A DNA stretch of 42,860 nucleotides, taken from contig JALGPX010000016.1 of NCBI GenBank assembly GCA_023515795.1, positions 65,981 to 108,840 on the forward strand, given 5' to 3'. The stretch comes from Amoeboaphelidium occidentale. Taxonomy: Eukaryota > Aphelidiomycota > Aphelidea. The translations under genes and the position numbers were made by a program. Shown here one piece after another: positions 12,215 through 40,075 of the stretch. Under the pieces are notes generated by a model. It was not told the DNA's origin, ran no database searches, and saw only the letters and a program-made list of their open reading frames with translations. The first letter of the stretch is position 1. Every line of letters starts with the position of its first letter.

Positions 12215-12591
12215 CAATACGATAGTAATAAATACTTGTTGTGATCTTACCAACAGGCTGAGAAGCCCAGCCGAGAATGATCTGGGCTAAGGGATTAGTG
12301 CTCGGCTAAGGAATGACGCGTTGGGTTGGAATATAAATGGCGGCCAACATTACAATTAATAAGTAAGGAATCACATCTAATACTTCACTATTTAATCCTT
12401 TTATCTGCTTCAATAGTCCTTACTTCTTACGTCATGTCCTCATTATGAATTCGCCTTGTATAGCCTAACTCCAACAGGATCCGTGAAAGAGAAGGCATAG
12501 AACCCTACAGGAGAGAAACTAAGAAGAGGAAACGTTGAATTTTCTACAATCTGTATTACGAGACCTGTTTGAACTGGAGTCGCTTTATTTT
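12215..12591. other. gene-free interval
   Basis: 377 bp without a supportable gene. It contains a partial palindromic G/C patch (GGCTGAGAAGCCCAGCC at about 12255) and near its end a 35-bp sequence that recurs at 29767. It separates the truncated gene copy from the 3' end of the deaminase gene. Confidence 0.6.
12509..12543 (+). repeat. dispersed short repeat, copy 1
   Basis: Matches 29767-29801 at 32 of 35 positions (core GGAGAGAAAC, then AAGAAGAG and TGAATTTT). Upstream of both copies a weaker shared TTAGTGCTC word occurs (12295 and 29680 regions). It may be the remnant of a degenerate transposable element or a small element end; neither copy has visible coding capacity. Confidence 0.5.
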
Positions 12592-15669: not shown

Positions 15670-18600
15670 ATGACCTCCACGGATTTGTACTCGCTGGTAC
15701 GCTTTGATTTTACAAAGGGTTAATTTTAGGGTGCTTCTGCATGGCTCCCGAACGCAGAGCAAGGTTAGCTTTTACAGGATTGTACTCATTTTGTCGCAGG
15801 TTATATCGGTGCAAGTATTGTCAAGGCAGAAGTTAAACAAGGAAAGTTTGTTCTGGTCTTAAAAGATTCCTCCTCGAAGGAACATGAAATCGCCGTAGAT
15901 TTGGGGGCTGATGGTGCAGACTCAATGTTGCCGCAGCTACAGAATCCTCCGCTGATGGATTACATTGATGATTTAACGCTTCTCACTTATTTGCATGAGC
16001 CTGGTGTTCTTCATGCGATTAAAAGTCGATACCTTCAACAGACTATTTACACTTATTCTGGTATCGTTCTTATTGCGATAAATCCTTTTGCAAAAGTTGC
16101 CATTTATTCTAATGATGTTGCAAAGGCGTATTCTGGTAAACGAAAGGGCGAATTAGAGCCGCACCTGTTTGCAATTGCAGAGGATGCTTACAGAGATATG
16201 GTCATAATGAATAAGAGTCAGAGTATAATTGTTTCAGGTGAATCTGGTGCTGGCAAGACTGTTAGTGCGAAATACATTATGCGATACTTTGCTTCGGTGA
16301 ATAATTTTGATAAGCACGGGGAAAGCGTGTGGTCTGAGAGACCTTTGAGTGCAACGGCAGGCGGGTCTCATGAAGCAGGCTCTTATGGTTCTGTTGAGGA
16401 TCAAGTCTTGGCGACAAATCCGATTATGGAAGCTTTTGGTAATGCTAAAACCACACGTAACGATAATTCTTCACGTTTCGGAAAGTATTTGGAGTTGCAG
16501 TTTAACAAGGACCACGAGATCATTGGAGCGATTATCAGGACTTATTTGTTGGAACGATCTCGTGTAGTATTTCAACCTGAAACAGAGAGAAATTACCATA
16601 TATTTTATCAGCTGTGCGAAGGAGTACCTCAAGCTGAAAAGAAAGAATTGTTCTTGGACAAAAGTAGTAGTTTTCATTATCTTAATCAAGGAAAAGCTCC
16701 AAAGATCGATGGTGTCGATGATGGTTCTGATTTCAATGAGACTGTTAAATCACTTTCGATGGTAGGGATCAGCGTCACAACACAGTGGAAGATATTCCGA
16801 GTTTTGGCTGGTATATTGCAATTAGGAAACATCAAAGTTCAACATACTCCTGAATTGATTAGAGATGACGACGAAGCTTTAGTAAGAGCATGCCAACTTC
16901 TTAAAATTCCAAAAGACGAGCTAAGAAAATGGTTGACAAAGAAACAAATATCGATGAGACAGGAGAAAATCGTTACCAACTTGAATGCTCAGCAATCTAT
17001 TGTCGTTCGAGATTCTGTTTCTAAGTTTGTTTATAATTGTGTGTTTGACTGGCTGGTACGAAAGATAAATGAATCGCTAAAAGAAAATGATGATTCCAAG
17101 GTTAAGACATTTATTGGGGTTTTAGATATATACGGTTTCGAGCATTTCAAAAAGAATTCATTTGAGCAGTTCTGTATCAACTACGCAAACGAAAAGTTGC
17201 AACAAGAGTTTAATCAACATGTCTTTAAACTGGAACAGGAGGAATATGTCAAAGAGGGGATAAAATGGTCATTCATCGATTTCAACGATAACAAGGATTG
17301 TATTGATTTGATAGAAGGAAAGTTGGGTGTGTTGTCTTTGCTCGACGAAGAAAGCAAACTTCCTGCTGGTGGAGATGATAGTCTGATCAACAAACTGCAT
17401 AAGCAATGCACCGAAAACAAGTATTTTGAGAAGCCAAGATTCAATTCGAACAAAGCTTTCGCTGTAAGACATTATGCAAACACAGTTGTATACGACATTG
17501 ATGGCTTTATTGAAAAGAATCGCGATACCATGCCTGATGAAATTAAGGTTCTTCTGGGAGCGGAGAGTCAAGAAGATTTCATCAAGGATTTAATCACATC
17601 GAGCAATCCTGGAGCTGTTAATCAAGCAAATACCCTTACAAAGAAGTTTAACTCACTCTCAAACACATTCAAATACTCTTTGAGCTTGCTAATGACGACC
17701 ATTAATAGCACAAATGCTCATTATATTCGTTGTATCAAACCCAATGAAGAAAAGAAGCCTTTCTTGTTCAATTCTGGTTATGTTCTTCAGCAATTGCGAG
17801 CTTGTGGTGTTCTCGAAACAATTAGAATTTCTTGTGCAGGTTATCCATCGAGATTCATGTTTACAGAGTTTGCTGAAAGATACAAGATCTTGGTACACTC
17901 ATCTAAGAGAAAGGGCCAAAATGATCCCCGGAAATTGAGTGCTGTGATTCTGGAAGATTTATTTCCAAAAGATGATGAGTCTGCTGTAGGTCAGGATAAG
18001 TACCAATTAGGCTCAACAAAATTATTCTTGCGAGCTGGACAACTTGCATTCATTGAAAACAAGAGAACAAACAAGATTAACGCTGCTGCGGTTATGATAC
18101 AGAAGTATTTTAGAGGATTCTCTCACAGAATCAAATACAATTTGTTTAAAATTATTCTTCTTGAGCTACAAGCTGCGTCTCGTGGTTTCATTGAAAGAAA
18201 GAAATATTTAGAGAGAAGAAAACTACGCAGTGCGATCAAAATTCAAAAGATTTATAGAGGTTATGTGGTTAGAAAGAAGTTCAACGATACCAAGAGCTTC
18301 ATTGTTCTCATGCAATCTGTTGCAAGAGGTTATTTGGTTCGTTCTCATTACTTGCGTGAAAGAAAAGAACAAGCTGCAGTTAAGATGCAATCATTGTGTC
18401 GTGGCTTCTTGGTCAGAAAGACGAACAGAATTTATTTAGCATCTTTGATTAAGGTTCAATCTGTGTTCAGACGACGACAAGCAAGAAAAGTATACAAATC
18501 ATTACGCGCAGAGCAGAAATCCATGCAACATGTGCAAAAGAAAGCATTCGCGCTGGAAAAGAAGGTTATTGAACTCAGTCAAGCAATGTCTAGAAAAGAA

Positions 18601-20398
18601 GACGAAAATGAGCGCTTGAAACTCCAAATGTCTGACCTTGAGGGCAACGTCATCAAGCATTTGAAAGATAAAATTGCCAAGTTGGAGAAGCATACTGAAG
18701 AGATTGTGAAACGAGAAGCGGAGAACATTGCAACCTTCAAGGAAAAGCTATTGAAGTCAGCTGATAAAGTCAAAGAGCTTGAAGCTGAAATCGAAAGCAA
18801 GAACAATGTGCTTGCTGGAAAGGACAAGGAAGCTCAAGAATTCCAACTCAAAATAACTCAGCTAGAAAATCAACTGTCTGGTATGGAATCTTTGAAATCG
18901 AACGAGAGACAAGACGAGTCTTCGAGAGTTGAGGGCTTGTTAACGGAGAACGCAAGTCTGAAAGAAAAAATCAAAGCATTAATGGGAGGTGGTGGAAGCA
19001 AGGCCAGACTTGTTCAATCCCAGTCTTCTCCAAAGCTCGAATTATCTCCAACGGGAAGCTATATTAATCCTAAATACGAACTTCATAGTGTTCCATCAAG
19101 TCAAAGTCTTGCGGCAGAGGAAAGAAAACAACCGACATTGGTCGTCAATGCAACTAGTGATATGAATCCGGCGAAGTCGCCACCAGAAGTCTTAAAGTTA
19201 TTCAAAGACCCTCTTATTGACAAGGAAATTAATGATATTCTGATCGCTCATTTGAATATTCCTCCTACTTTACCTCAAGATGTTAGACCGAAGAAAGACG
19301 TTTTATTTCCTGCACACTTGTTGGGTTTCATTATAATACAATCTCTGAGATACAATTTAATGGACAGATTGAAATTACTCTTTGGAAATGCAATGAATGA
19401 GATAAGGCTTGTAGTCAAATATGATGATAATGTGTGTGTAACCTTCTGGATGAGCAACCTGTATGAGTTGCAATGCATCATGAAAACGATCGTGGAGGAT
19501 AACAAGAATGCAAGCAAGGCTGCTAGCAGCTCGATTGAACAGATTACGAAATCTGCAGACCAAGTCGGATTCTTTATAATTGAAATATTCTACAATTGGT
19601 TAAAGGAATTGAAGAAGAAACTAACTCCGATGATCATTCCAGGTATCATTGAGCATCAAGGCCTTCCCGCATTTATGGATGACTCAAGTACAAGCACTAC
19701 ATCGTTTTTGAGTAGATGGATATCAACAAGCTCTTCGAGTGGCGGTAGCGCCGCCAGTTCGATGGTTGTTTCAACAGACAAGTTGATAAACTGGATGAGT
19801 AAGTTGAACGAGATTATGAATTCATTCTATCTGCATGATTCTATTCGAAGGCAAATAATAACAATTCTTATAAAGCATATCGGGGTCTCATGCTTTAACA
19901 ATTTAATCATGAGAAAGAATTTTTGCACATGGAAGCGAGGAATGCAAATTCAGTACAATGTTACTCGCTTTGAAGAATGGTGTACAAAGAATAATGTTGG
20001 AGAAGCTGCTCTACATCTGGAACCACTAATGCAATGTGCAAAACTTTTACAGCTTAACAAGACTGTTGCAGAAGATGTTGATTTGATGTTTGATGTGTGC
20101 TTCCTTCTGTCTCCGCAACAGATTAAGAAAATGCTTAGTGTTTATTATACCACAGAGTATGAAAATCAAATACCATCAGAAATATTTCACGCGGTTGACT
20201 CGAAGTAAGTTAAATGACTCGATGATCTCATTGTTTAGGTGTGTTGAAGAGGGCAAAGCTGCAAGTTTTCTTCTAGAGAGCGGCGAAGACTCTCCTTTTG
20301 TTGTCCCAAGCCCTTATCACGTGGACAGAATTGAAACATTTGTACCAACCTACCTTGATGCCAAATTGGTCGCGCTAAAGCACATCCTTGATCTTTAG
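15670..20398 (+). CDS. MYO2: class V myosin heavy chain
   Basis: Exons 15670-15696, 15730-15763, 15800-20204 and 20239-20398 give 1541 aa; the introns are 33, 36 and 34 nt. The two tiny first exons restore the family's SH3-like N-terminus (SAWLPNAEQGYIGA). Seen: P-loop GESGAGKT (167-174), switch I NDNSSRFGK, switch II DIYGFE (about 463), six IQ motifs (about 783-930) for light chains, a short coiled coil (about 930-1070), and a C-terminal DIL cargo-binding domain (about 1155-1455). Family knowledge: the motor moves secretory vesicles, vacuoles and mitochondria along actin towards growth sites and binds Rab-type receptors through the DIL domain. All motor motifs are intact. The next gene starts only 42 bp after the stop, on the same strand. 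Confidence 0.97.
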
Positions 20399-35517: not shown

Positions 35518-36727
35518 ATGAAACCCACAATGAAAGAGATCAAGTATGAGTCTATTGTTGACAAGACCAGTCTCTTGTATGACGCAAGTGATGCTGCAAA
35601 GTCAACAGACGCAAAATCAAAAGACTTTGATCGTGTCATTATTCCTGAGTCGCTGCATTTGGATGAAGAGAACGCAGAATTGCTTCCTGGTATTGATGAT
35701 GATCGCATTTGGAGAGATTCGCTCGATAACTTGAAAAATACCGCTCCAAACAAGTCAAAGGAAGAGATATTTGGTTTGGCATTAATGCTCGCATCTTCAG
35801 TGATGTTCTCATCCATGTCTCTTGGTGTTAAAGTGTTGAGCTCTAATCCGAAATTCAGGTTCCCGTCTTTCGAGATGGCGTTTGCAAGATCTTTGCTTCA
35901 AGCAATTTTGTCTGGATCATATCTCTTGATCAAGAAACAAAACCCTTTTGGTCCAGCAGATAAGAAAGTGAGAACTTTGCTGCTACTTAGAGGCTTATGT
36001 GGTACAATTGGTCTTTGCTTGTTCTATTGGACTCTGACTGTGATGTCCCTTTCTGATGCGAACGTTGTTTTCTTCACCGGACCTCCATTCACTGCTTTAT
36101 TGTCATACCTCGTGTTAAGAGAACCTATTTCTGGTCTTGATATTTTCGCATTCATTTCAAGTTTATTTGCTGTAGTTCTTGTTGCTAGACCATCCTTCAT
36201 ATTCCACGACCAACAATCCGGAGATTCAAGTTCGGCTGGAAGAGTTTTTGGTGCAATTGCTGGAATAGTTGGTGCAATGACTTCTGCCGTTACTGTAGTG
36301 ACAATCAGAAAAATTAAGAAGATTCATAATGACATACCTGCGATGGTATTGGTTTTCTACTTTGGGTTTGTAGCTAGTCTCGTCACTCCATTATTCATGT
36401 TCACCTTGCAAAAACCAGTGCTTCCAGAAACACCTGAAGCATGGGTTGGAATTTTCATTACAAGTTTATTGGCTTTCTTTGGACAGTTGCTCAGTAACAA
36501 GGGATTTCTTTTAGCTCCAGCAGGTAAGCATTCTTGTTACAAGTTTAACTAAAACTTTCATAGGTCCTGCAATGTTGATGAGAAACCTTGATATCGTTTT
36601 CGTGTTCATCTTTGATATTTTCATTCTGAACACCGCACCTGATACATGGTCATATGTTGGTGCTGGAGTTATTGTCTTGTCGACATTGCTAGTTGCTGCA
36701 AAGAAATTATTCTCGAGTAAATCATGA
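35518..36727 (+). CDS. EamA/DMT-superfamily transporter (SLC35G-like)
   Basis: Exons 35518-36523 and 36564-36727 (40-nt intron) give 389 aa. Seen: a soluble acidic N-terminus of about 80 residues, then about ten hydrophobic segments arranged as two EamA repeats: FGLALMLASSVMFSSMSLGVK and, in the second half, VFGAIAGIVGAMTSAVTVV. Conserved family features visible are RSLLQAILSG, LFYWTLTVMSLSDANVVFF and PPFTALLSYLVLREPIS. The intron lies in the second repeat and restores APAGPAMLMRNLDIVF. Family knowledge: drug/metabolite transporters move small solutes across plasma or organelle membranes; this subgroup is poorly assigned. Substrate unknown. Confidence 0.88.
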
Positions 36728-36781
36728 TCTAGATGATATACATTCTAATAAATATGAGTACAAATATATCAGCTTTGAAGC

Positions 36782-37505
36782 ATGAACGCGATTTTGAAGA
36801 GCTGTTCACAAACTCGCCAAGAACTTGATCGCAACGCCATTTTTCCCGTTGTTCTTCCACAGATGATTGCGACTGAAATTATTTCCAAGACAGCAAAGCC
36901 GCTTTCGCCGCATCCTACGCAGCTGAATCCGAATTCAAATTGGGTCAACTTTAGAGGTGCATGGGTTACTAATATGGTCCTTCTGGTGTTCTTGAGGATG
37001 TTTTTCACTATCATTCCTGGAATTTCTACTGAGATCGCATGGACATTGACTAATGTGCTGTTCCTCTTTGTAAGCGCTGCGATAATTGAGATTTTCCTTA
37101 TTTCTTTAGGGTCACTTCATAATGTTCCACTGGCTTACTGGCACACCTTTCGATGCTGATCAGGGCGAATTCGATGGACTTACGCTCTGGGAACAGATCG
37201 ATAACGGCGCACAATTCACACCCGCTAAAAAGTTTCTTACCGCACTTCCTATTGTATTGTAAGTGTTTTACCTGGCTTGATCACATGAGCCACAATACAC
37301 GACAATCGAGTATGTGGCTCATGTGATCAGATTGCCAATTGGAACTCTGCTAATATTTTGTAGCTTTTTACTCAGCACCCACTACACCAACTACGATTTG
37401 ACCCTTTTCTGCATCAATTTGATTCCGTTAGTTATTGTTCTTATTGGGAAGCTACCCGCTATGCACCGTGTCAGATTGTTTGGTATCAACAAGATTGAGG
37501 ATTAG
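36782..37505 (+). CDS. ORM1: Orm/ORMDL family sphingolipid regulator
   Basis: Exons 36782-37069, 37110-37258 and 37364-37505 give 192 aa, longer than human ORMDL (about 153) and near the yeast Orms. Introns are 40 and 105 nt. The second join restores FLTALPIVFFLLSTHYTNYD, the expected family sequence. Seen: a N-terminal extension, NPNSNWVNFRGAW, a hydrophobic segment, GHFIMFHW, GTPFDADQGEFDGLTLWEQIDNGAQFTPAKKFLTALPI in pieces typical of the family, then two C-terminal membrane segments. Family knowledge: Orm proteins bind and hold serine palmitoyltransferase in the ER. Odd: intron 2 contains a strong hairpin, and a nearer AG (37329-37330) would keep the frame open and add about eleven residues. 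Confidence 0.95.
37278..37329 (+). promoter_or_regulatory. strong inverted repeat inside an Orm-gene intron
   Basis: The left arm 37278-37298 and the right arm 37310-37329 pair over 20 bp with one bulged A; the loop is 11 nt (37299-37309). It lies between the donor (37259) and the branch/acceptor region (acceptor ends 37363). The 3' base of the stem contains the proximal candidate acceptor AG. The intron is 105 nt, far above the local 31-46 nt norm. The pairing is seen; its effect on splicing is inference. Confidence 0.85.
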
Positions 37506-37651
37506 AGAATGTAAATACAACTTAATAAAATTGTTATGATATAGTATTCTGCGGGTTTGCTTTTATGTGGGTTAGTTTACCTTAAGGTCTGAGCGTTCTC
37601 AGGTCTTTGCTATTTATACATTGAATCAACACCTGACTTCAACTACCACAA

Positions 37652-40075
37652 ATGGAGTTCATTAATGGGATGGATGTTACAAGCGAAAGCACGGGCAGTA
37701 TAACGTCTGCTGCATCATCTGATAAGACCAGTTCATCGCCTGGGAAGAGACGAGCTGCGAAAGCATGCGATCTTTGTCATCAGAGAAAGGTGAAGTGTGA
37801 TGAGAAAGTGCCTTGTTCCAACTGCATTAAACATAACGCAGAGTGTGTATACATCAACCGGAAGAGGGGTCTTTCCACAAAAGTGAAGATGAATCTTGCA
37901 CAATTGTTCTCCACGAGGGTAGGAATAGGAAGTGATGGGTCTGGCGTCAGCAGTGATAATGTCCATAAGCCACGAAAAAGACCAGGTAGTAGCTTTAGTG
38001 TAAGTGCACCAGCTTCTCCAGCTATACAAAGTCGCCCCATATTTGCAACTGGAGGGTTTGCTGAAGATTCTGGTGGTTCCAGTAAATCGGGTTCGAAATC
38101 AAACGAAAGTTTCACGGATAAGCTGCATGGACTGTTTACTGGTGGGACAAAATCTAATTCAAGTTTGGGTTCCAAGGGTACTGTTGGATCTCGATCTTTC
38201 ACATTGTCTCCCGCAAGAAGTTTCGCGACTGAAGATCATCAGCATATTGATATTATCGTGGATTACTACTTCCTTCATCTGTACGAAGGGAACCCAATTT
38301 TCCATGAAAGTACCTTCAAACAAGCGGTCAGAGAGCGAAAAGTTCCTTCTCATTTGTTGAGTTCCCTGATGGCGTATACTTGTAAATATGCTCAAGTTAC
38401 AGGAGATCTAACGTTCATTTCTCACAAAAGCGTGGAGATATACAACAAAGCAAAGGACAACCTGAAAAGTATTATTGAAGATGAAACAATTGCTTCTGTT
38501 CAGTCAATGATATTATTGGCCCTTTGTGCTTGTTTGAACGGAGAGCTCAGACAGGCAAAGCTTTTCGTTAGCATGACCGTAACTTCTTGCGTCGGTTTGA
38601 CTTTGAATATTGATCCTAATGATATACCTGTATGCGCATCTCTTTGTCCGTTAGAAAAAGAGATGAGACGAAGGATATGGTGGTTGACTTATGTGTTGGA
38701 TAGAACTGTAGCATTCAGTACCATGGAGTTTCCCAACATTGACGATATGAAATGTGCTGTTTCGTTTCCTATGCCAGAGTTGGTATTCAGAAGCCTTGAT
38801 AAGCAGCCAAGACCCTCGTCTATGTATGGTGTCACTCTACATTCGATACATAATATCACACCTGAAGCCTTACGACCAAAAATTGATGTGGGATCATTTG
38901 CTATCGCACTCTGTAGCTTCCTAGGAAGACTAACCTTATATCTTAAAAAGGTCGTACATTCAGGCTTTGATCAGATATACACGGAATCTGCGGAAAAAGA
39001 AGCATTATTGAAGGAGTTCCAGCGACTGAGTCGACTGAGACCGGGTGATATTAACGACGAAATCAAACCTGCTCAATTGTTTTCAATGAGGATGGCAGAG
39101 TGTGTAATAACCTTCTTGAATTCAATGTTGTTGTTGGCATATCCGCAATTGATCACTATGGACTTTCCAACCGTACAGCACTTCCGGCCAGAAATTCTGA
39201 GTCTCTTTGCTACTTATTCTAATGAAATTGCAATAGTCACAAAAAACATTGCGATTTCGAACGATACCTTCTCCAGAGTATCTCCATTTATCGCGTCGCA
39301 GTTATTCTTTGCTGCTTTAGCCACTGTGATTGTAATTGCTAATGAAACTGATTTAAACCGGAGGCATAGACATGTTTCACATCTTAAAGTGCTTATGAAT
39401 GCGATATCAAGGATTTCAAACATGTGGGTTTCTACAAAAAGATTTGATATACAAATTAACGAGCTGACAAAGAAGCACAGGATATTGACTGAGAAACGTA
39501 AAATTAGCAATGTCAACGCTCAGCCTGCTATTTCGGAAAAGCCTAAAGAAACATCTACTTGGTCACGAGCCTCTACATCGGAAGCATCAAAGACAGAAAG
39601 CTCTCAAGAAACGGATTATTCTGTGACCGGATTGCAAGGAATCCCGATGCCTACAGAGTTTAATCTGGACGTGAATTTGGCAGACATGCTGAGTCTGAAT
39701 TATGAAGGTTTGGAACTCCCGTTGAATCAAGGAGGTGATGACACGGAAATGCTTTCAAGGGAGATTAAATTAGAACTTTCATCAAACGACTCACTCACCG
39801 CAGACATACTTCGAGCAACATCATTAGAGTTTGCACAATTTGAAGTTGAAACAATGTCTTCGAGTCAACAAGGCTCATCTGCTACTCCTACAGATACTCC
39901 ATCTATGTCTGCTAAGAAGGCCAGAACCAATTCTAAAGATAGTGAACTATCACCTGGAAACGCATTTCAAAGTATCAGAACGCGTCCAGGTATAAAAGCT
40001 TCGGGCTCGATTAATAATGGCATTAAGGGGGGCACAGATCAAAACAATTCCAGTAAAAGCTGGTTCACCATGTGA
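37652..40075 (+). CDS. Zn2Cys6 fungal transcription factor
   Basis: Single exon, 807 aa from ATG 37652. Seen: a binuclear zinc cluster with C39, C42, C49, C55, C58 and C65 (spacing 2-6-5-2-6) and basic residues RKVK between, a basic/Ser-rich linker, and the fungal-specific middle domain from about residue 195 (DIIVDYYFLHLYEGNPIFHE) containing MRRRIWWLTYVLDRT, typical of the family. The C-terminal third is Ser/Thr-rich and acidic, consistent with activation. Family knowledge: such regulators bind CGG half-sites and often control nearby metabolism genes. Whether it acts on the adjacent subtilisin genes is unknown; only proximity suggests it. Confidence 0.95.
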   Translation: MEFINGMDVTSESTGSITSAASSDKTSSSPGKRRAAKACDLCHQRKVKCDEKVPCSNCIKHNAECVYINRKRGLSTKVKMNLAQLFSTRVGIGSDGSGVSSDNVHKPRKRPGSSFSVSAPASPAIQSRPIFATGGFAEDSGGSSKSGSKSNESFTDKLHGLFTGGTKSNSSLGSKGTVGSRSFTLSPARSFATEDHQHIDIIVDYYFLHLYEGNPIFHESTFKQAVRERKVPSHLLSSLMAYTCKYAQVTGDLTFISHKSVEIYNKAKDNLKSIIEDETIASVQSMILLALCACLNGELRQAKLFVSMTVTSCVGLTLNIDPNDIPVCASLCPLEKEMRRRIWWLTYVLDRTVAFSTMEFPNIDDMKCAVSFPMPELVFRSLDKQPRPSSMYGVTLHSIHNITPEALRPKIDVGSFAIALCSFLGRLTLYLKKVVHSGFDQIYTESAEKEALLKEFQRLSRLRPGDINDEIKPAQLFSMRMAECVITFLNSMLLLAYPQLITMDFPTVQHFRPEILSLFATYSNEIAIVTKNIAISNDTFSRVSPFIASQLFFAALATVIVIANETDLNRRHRHVSHLKVLMNAISRISNMWVSTKRFDIQINELTKKHRILTEKRKISNVNAQPAISEKPKETSTWSRASTSEASKTESSQETDYSVTGLQGIPMPTEFNLDVNLADMLSLNYEGLELPLNQGGDDTEMLSREIKLELSSNDSLTADILRATSLEFAQFEVETMSSSQQGSSATPTDTPSMSAKKARTNSKDSELSPGNAFQSIRTRPGIKASGSINNGIKGGTDQNNSSKSWFTM

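What the first reader, a model, noticed from the sequence alone, without database searches (positions are those of the whole stretch)
37259..37363. Hairpin-containing long intron in an Orm-family gene, with a second in-frame acceptor at the stem base
The intron is 105 nt while nearly all others here are 31-46 nt. A 20-bp stem with one bulge and an 11-nt loop sits in it, and the proximal AG (37329-37330) lies at its 3' foot. Using that AG would keep the frame and insert about eleven residues into a membrane segment; the far AG gives the family's normal sequence. The hairpin could hide the near acceptor, or its opening could switch isoforms of a sphingolipid regulator.
Basis: partly seen in the sequence, partly recalled or inferred. 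Interest (0 to 1): 0.8.

Follow-up and report, generated by a model that had tools for sequence, protein, structure and literature searches.

The report
Stem-loop inside an Orm gene intron
An algal parasite carries an unusually strong stem-loop inside one gene intron; it most likely folds out of the way so that the intron is spliced normally, much like stems already known in yeast introns, and nothing yet shows that it acts as a switch.

Summary
The window is Amoeboaphelidium occidentale (identical deposited protein). Intron 2 of its ORMDL gene (37259-37363, 105 nt) holds a near-perfect hairpin: 17-bp perfect core, z -8.1. It is the longer of two perfect inverted repeats of at least 13 bp (loop up to 60) in 249,831 sampled bases; no second copy was found in the 11.3-Mb assembly. 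Introns here are mostly 30-60 nt.

The near AG (37329) is in frame (+11 aa) but lies upstream of the best branch-point word (CTAAT, A 37353); its nearest own candidate (CTCAT) is weaker and paired in the stem. The deposited protein uses the far AG. The stem also buries a decoy donor, GTATGT at 37310; its use would give an immediate stop.

Two metagenome relatives seem to carry an unspliced 42- or 45-nt intron at this position. Best reading: a lineage-specific insertion that loops out, leaving a ~40-nt effective intron, like a yeast zipper stem. The genome has two Dicers and six Argonaute loci, so a small-RNA precursor is an open rival. Isoform switching has no evidence.

The parts
36863..37069 (+). 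ORMDL exon 1
   Evidence: Joined exons translate to the deposited 165-aa protein; PF04061 E 1.3e-56
37070..37109 (+). Intron 1, 40 nt, ordinary size
37110..37258 (+). ORMDL exon 2
37259..37363 (+). Intron 2, 105 nt, phase 2, with the hairpin
   Evidence: signal score rank 2 of 251 modelled introns
37259..37264 (+). 5' splice site GTAAGT, 88th percentile of 131 modelled short-intron donors
37273..37337 (+). Whole hairpin; outer helix 37273-37276/37334-37337
   Evidence: MFE structure
37278..37294 (+). 5' arm of the 17-bp perfect core; holds a branch-point-like TTGAT partly (A 37280)
37313..37329 (+). 3' arm of the 17-bp perfect core
37310..37315 (+). Decoy 5' splice site GTATGT, paired in the stem; its use gives a 119-aa product
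   Evidence: 54th percentile of 131 donors, unpaired probability up to 0.02
37318..37322 (+). Branch-point-like CTCAT (A 37321) before the near AG, paired
   Evidence: 31st percentile of 131
37329..37330 (+). Near AG, in frame, paired
37350..37354 (+). Branch point CTAAT (A 37353), best in the intron, 83rd percentile of 131
37362..37363 (+). Far AG, used in the deposited protein
37364..37505 (+). ORMDL exon 3 with stop

Best explanation
Intron 2 of this aphelid ORMDL gene is an old, normally spliced intron that gained a self-complementary insertion of about 65 nt in the lineage of A. occidentale. [quoted passage not shown] The stem also buries a decoy donor (37310) and the near acceptor (37329), so the far AG is the productive choice. 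It works like zipper stems and site-occluding stems of yeast introns. Shown by computation: hairpin, signals, spacing, no second copy found, far-junction protein. Inferred: folding in cells, insertion rather than loss elsewhere, benefit to splicing.
For: Hairpin far beyond chance. 5' splice site to branch A is 94 nt against a median of 26 in 141 modelled introns of up to 60 nt; without the hairpin the intron is 39-40 nt. Linkers of 19 and 23 nt, sum 42, meet the yeast zipper-stem rule of 42-85 nt, at least 10 and at least 20 (passages of PMC12350175). Decoy donor and near AG are paired. Deposited protein is the far-AG product. P0040 and P0121 read as unspliced 42- and 45-nt introns at the same place.
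Against: No RNA data. The 42-nt sum is at the lower limit of a rule made for yeast, and with the 4 outer pairs the rule fails. [quoted passage not shown] Some modelled introns over 60 nt are not structured (mean z near 0 by eye), so the stem may not be needed, though many of those models are doubtful. The relatives' introns are inferred from proteins only; P0116 and P0129 show none here.
Confidence: 0.55

Rival explanations
1. Neutral accident: a palindromic insertion, for example from a template switch in replication, that is tolerated because it folds up, has no selected role, and is young enough to be still near-perfect.
For: No second copy found; relatives seem to have short introns here; perfect pairing is also what a young event leaves.
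Against: It sits with spacing that fits a zipper stem and covers two decoy sites, which may be chance.
Confidence: 0.35
2. Intronic small-RNA precursor: Dicer cuts the hairpin to a 21-23-nt duplex, as for intron-derived miRNAs of Chlamydomonas.
For: Two genes with Helicase_C, Dicer dimerisation and two RNase III domains and six loci with both PAZ and Piwi matches. Hairpin size and stability fit a precursor (MFE index 1.33). In Chlamydomonas intron hairpins give miRNAs without blocking splicing (PMC4817775, abstract and section 7).
Against: No small-RNA data. Rfam gave 4 sub-threshold hits of E 4.4-8.7 in 36500-38000. Target evidence is weak: 0 non-self sites with 0-1 mismatch and 3 with 2 for the 17-mer; 16-nt identity in one Ctr-like gene. 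Fungal hairpin small RNAs lie very rarely in introns (passages of PMC9757828).
Confidence: 0.15
3. One reading: opening of the hairpin exposes the near AG and makes a +11-residue ORMDL isoform.
For: In frame, CAG, a branch-point-like CTCAT 7 nt before it; 3 of 66 modelled long introns have all this.
Against: Upstream of the best branch point; the other good word, TTGAT at A 37280, is 48 nt away where modelled introns show 3-31 nt. No homologue held has such a peptide. Decoy donor competes and gives a stop.
Confidence: 0.04
4. Fold-back mobile element related to a repeat that holds GATCACAATGCGTCACAATACAC.
For: That motif (or a one-base variant) lies at 8 other places and differs from the 5' arm plus loop by 2 changes and 1 gap.
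Against: Only 22 nt alike, noticed after the fact (about 0.06 expected by my hand estimate); the flanks seen differ; no target-site duplication by eye; no second hairpin copy.
Confidence: 0.06

Closest known systems
Zipper stems of S. cerevisiae introns (RPS17B type; PMC12350175, passages seen)
   [quoted passage not shown] spacing rule met at its lower limit
   Different: Here a 17-bp perfect hairpin in a 105-nt intron of a genome with ~40-nt introns; no probing or splicing data
Stems occluding cryptic 3' splice sites in yeast introns (RPS23B, RPL34A; PMC12350175, passages seen)
   Same: A decoy AG is paired
   [quoted passage not shown] here the decoy AG lies upstream of the branch point, and a decoy donor is buried too
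Intron-derived miRNAs of Chlamydomonas (PMC4817775, abstract and section 7 seen)
   Same: Hairpin within an intron, Dicer and Argonaute genes in the genome
   Different: No small RNAs known here
Mirtrons (recalled; named in listings)
   Same: Intronic hairpin of precursor size
   Different: Hairpin ends 14 nt from the donor and 26 nt from the intron end, not at the splice sites

Membership tests
[quoted passage not shown]
   17 bp perfect core, branch A 37353
Zipper stem (criteria of PMC12350175) | Linkers 42-85 nt in sum, at least 10 nt from 5' splice site, at least 20 nt from branch point | tested here: met
   19 + 23 = 42 for the 17-bp core; not met if the 4 outer pairs are counted
Zipper stem (criteria of PMC12350175) | Forms in cells and aids splicing | not testable with these tools
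   No probing, no RNA reads, no minigene
Fungal mi/milRNA hairpin | Dicer and Argonaute present | tested here: met
Fungal mi/milRNA hairpin | Duplex without secondary stems or large loops | tested here: met
   structure; criteria from passages of PMC9757828
Fungal mi/milRNA hairpin | Small-RNA reads of defined size from one strand | not testable with these tools
   No small-RNA data
Mirtron | Hairpin ends at the splice sites (recalled definition) | tested here: not met
   Tails of 14 and 26 nt (structure)
Mobile fold-back element (MITE) | Several copies | tested here: not met
   No second copy (the latter skips common words); a 22-nt likeness to an 8-place motif remains
Mobile fold-back element (MITE) | Target-site duplication | tested here: inconclusive
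   None seen by eye; no empty site available
Alternative 3' splice site switch | Both junctions found in RNA | not testable with these tools
   Only an annotated protein
Alternative 3' splice site switch | Good branch point for the near AG | tested here: inconclusive
   CTCAT, 31st percentile of 131, paired in the stem
ORMDL protein family | PF04061 over its cut-off | tested here: met
   190.6 bits against 27

The most novel reading that the evidence does not exclude
The stem is a dual-purpose element: closed, it hides a poison donor and a decoy acceptor and lets ORMDL be spliced; cut by one of the two Dicers it yields a small RNA and spoils the pre-mRNA, so that ORMDL output and a small RNA are coupled in an aphelid, a lineage close to the root of Fungi.
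Probability: 0.1. Interest if true: 0.7.

Novelty: new member of a known kind. Interest (0 to 1): 0.35.

Why it matters
It would show that intron stems that fold away excess length and bury decoy sites are not peculiar to yeasts, and how a genome with ~40-nt introns can absorb an insertion. If the small-RNA rival is right it would be a candidate small-RNA hairpin in aphelids; two searches of the paper library for aphelids with RNAi terms (listings only, the first capped at 10 of 9,273) listed nothing about it.

Tried and rejected
Rfam on 36500-38000 at E up to 10: 4 hits, all far below their gathering scores. My first intron finders failed: too strict (6 introns) or over-predicting. The third is usable for short introns, but its long ones are doubtful: of 9 inspected one has an intron wholly open in one frame and reading like protein (C89a minus 17878-18098). 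So 'long introns are unstructured' is weak evidence. P0150 also has extra residues at the place; by hand decoding I read a ~71-nt intron, which no call supports. P0116 and P0129 show no intron here (P0116 by a hand-read frame shift); they may be transcripts or may have lost it. Structure prediction was not run: it would not decide the question, and the near-AG isoform cannot be read letter for letter from the DNA. Searches (intron structure; template switching; aphelid introns; aphelid genome paper by title) gave listings only; one paper was then opened. The genome paper itself was not among the 8 listed.

Full report
What the window is. The ORMDL protein joined from 36863-37069, 37110-37258 and 37364-37505 is identical over 165 aa to MP638_004059 of Amoeboaphelidium occidentale, an aphelid. 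That record is an annotation; whether RNA data stand behind it I do not know. The assembly G000 has 11,314,846 bases in 204 contigs.

The observation. Intron 2 is 105 nt with GTAAGT, CTAAT (A 37353) and TAG; its splice-signal score is rank 2 of 251 modelled introns. The hairpin is real: perfect 17-bp arms, MFE -46.3 kcal/mol, z -8.1, 0 of 200 shuffles as low. With 60 shuffles its z is -6.1, the lowest of the 78 modelled introns over 60 nt with signal 13 or more (next -3.5 and -3.0). Of 6 inverted repeats within 60 nt in the window it is the longest and the only perfect one. In 249,831 sampled bases 2 perfect repeats of 13 bp or more with loops up to 60 were found, this one the longer; 0.24 of 13 bp or more and 0.001 of 17 bp or more are expected by an independent-base estimate. 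In the whole assembly the 17-mer arm gives 38 matches with up to 3 mismatches: its own two arms at 0, none at 1, 3 at 2 and 33 at 3; the backward control gives 5, while my hand estimate of chance is about 26. The intron matches only itself at E up to 10, in a search that skips common words.

Normal intron size. My gene model puts 126 of 251 introns at 30-49 nt and 150 of 251 at up to 60. A count free of that model, donors against downstream branch-point/acceptor pairs in the 288-kb sample, gives 28 at 30-59 nt against 16, 11 and 13 in three controls; two longer bins are also above controls, 105-119 (11 against 6-7) and 285-299 (14 against 5-9). In the whole assembly GTAAGT..CTAAT..YAG gives 97, 18 and 27 matches for gaps of 13-43, 44-74 and 75-105, overlapping matches included; 4 of the 27 belong to one repeat. 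The backward patterns give 152, 111 and 129, more in number but far flatter.

Near AG or far AG. The near AG is in frame and would add LPIGTLLIFCS. It lies 24 nt upstream of the best branch-point word (GCTAAT, 83rd percentile of 131 modelled short introns). Its own nearest candidate is CTCAT, 7 nt upstream, 31st percentile: weak, not absent. A third word, TTGAT with A 37280 (52nd percentile), lies in the 5' arm 48 nt before the near AG, where modelled introns show 3-31 nt; the AGs close to it, 37288 and 37309, are GAG. CTCAT and the near AG are paired: unpaired probability about 0, and 0.03 and 0.12. Of 66 modelled introns over 60 nt, 26 have an in-frame stop-free upstream AG and 3, this one included, have one with YAG and a fair branch-point-like word. 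Of 155 homologues held, 147 have both flanks and 3 have extra residues here (P0040, P0121, P0150).

A second decoy. The stem also holds GTATGT at 37310, a donor of median strength (54th percentile of 131), 43 nt from the branch A and 54 nt from the end of the far AG. Its use would keep 37259-37309, where TTG is followed by TAA: a 119-aa product. If the stem ever opens, this site may compete at least as well as the near AG.

History of the intron. P0040 (metagenome, 65% identical to this ORMDL) and P0121 (78% identical to P0040) have 15 and 16 residues at exactly this place that begin LY, as TT|GTAY would, and end in S or R, as AG-something would: unspliced phase-2 introns of 42 and 45 nt. The codons are inferred from the proteins, and only in-frame stop-free introns can be seen this way. 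The intron is therefore probably old and short and the hairpin a later gain; loss in the relatives is the alternative, and P0116 and P0129 show no intron here. Without the hairpin the intron is 39-40 nt.

Mechanism. The 17-bp stem begins 19 nt after the 5' splice site and ends 23 nt before the branch A, 42 nt in sum. Published modelling for yeast zipper stems asks for 42-85 nt, at least 10 and at least 20 nt (passages of PMC12350175). The same paper reports stems enriched at cryptic 3' splice sites (passages). Both roles fit here. [quoted passage not shown]

Small-RNA rival. Two genes have Helicase_C, Dicer dimerisation and two RNase III domains (1354- and 1666-aa frames; best solved relative a plant Dicer homologue), and six loci have both PAZ and Piwi matches (C9, C69, C96, C163, C178, C197). 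The hairpin has precursor-like size and stability. Targets are weak: 3 non-self sites with 2 mismatches, one of them a 16-nt identity in a Ctr-like gene. In Chlamydomonas intron hairpins give miRNAs and do not block splicing (PMC4817775, abstract and section 7); in fungi hairpin small RNAs within introns are very rare (PMC9757828, passages).

Verdict. A real and striking hairpin with an ordinary most likely role: a new member of the known class of intron stems. Switching is not supported. A Dicer substrate is the most interesting open reading.

Noticed in passing
L048:359-5359 (+) and L047:474-4538 (-): Two intronless-looking Dicer genes (helicase C, Dicer dimerisation, two RNase III domains) in an aphelid; a third, short RNase III frame lies at G000:C74:16025-16288.
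   Followed up: partly
G000 C9, C69, C96, C163, C178, C197: Six loci with both PAZ and Piwi matches; the one on C9 has a TAA inside one Piwi match.
   Followed up: partly
G000 C26, C41, C44, C55, C106, C171, C178, C183: A dispersed motif GATCACAATGCGTCACAATACAC (8 places) resembles the hairpin's 5' arm plus loop with 2 changes and 1 gap; nature of the repeat unknown.
   Followed up: partly
L006:1051-3015: Frame with cysteine-rich repeats and a C-terminal Ctr copper transporter domain; shares 16 nt exactly with the hairpin's 3' arm.
   Followed up: partly
L034-L042 (G000:C12:100001-190000): 36,312 of 90,000 bases read N, and two modelled introns (segment positions 12583 and 13218) begin with the same 62 nt, so there is a local duplication, real or of assembly.
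   Followed up: no
window 15769-20208: Myosin V-like frame: myosin head, IQ and DIL domains. Neighbours of the Orm gene are an EamA transporter (from 35494) and a Zn2Cys6 transcription factor (37637-40075).
   Followed up: no
window 38165-38186 and 38276-38297: Imperfect 22-nt inverted repeat (73%) in the transcription-factor frame; probably chance.
   Followed up: no
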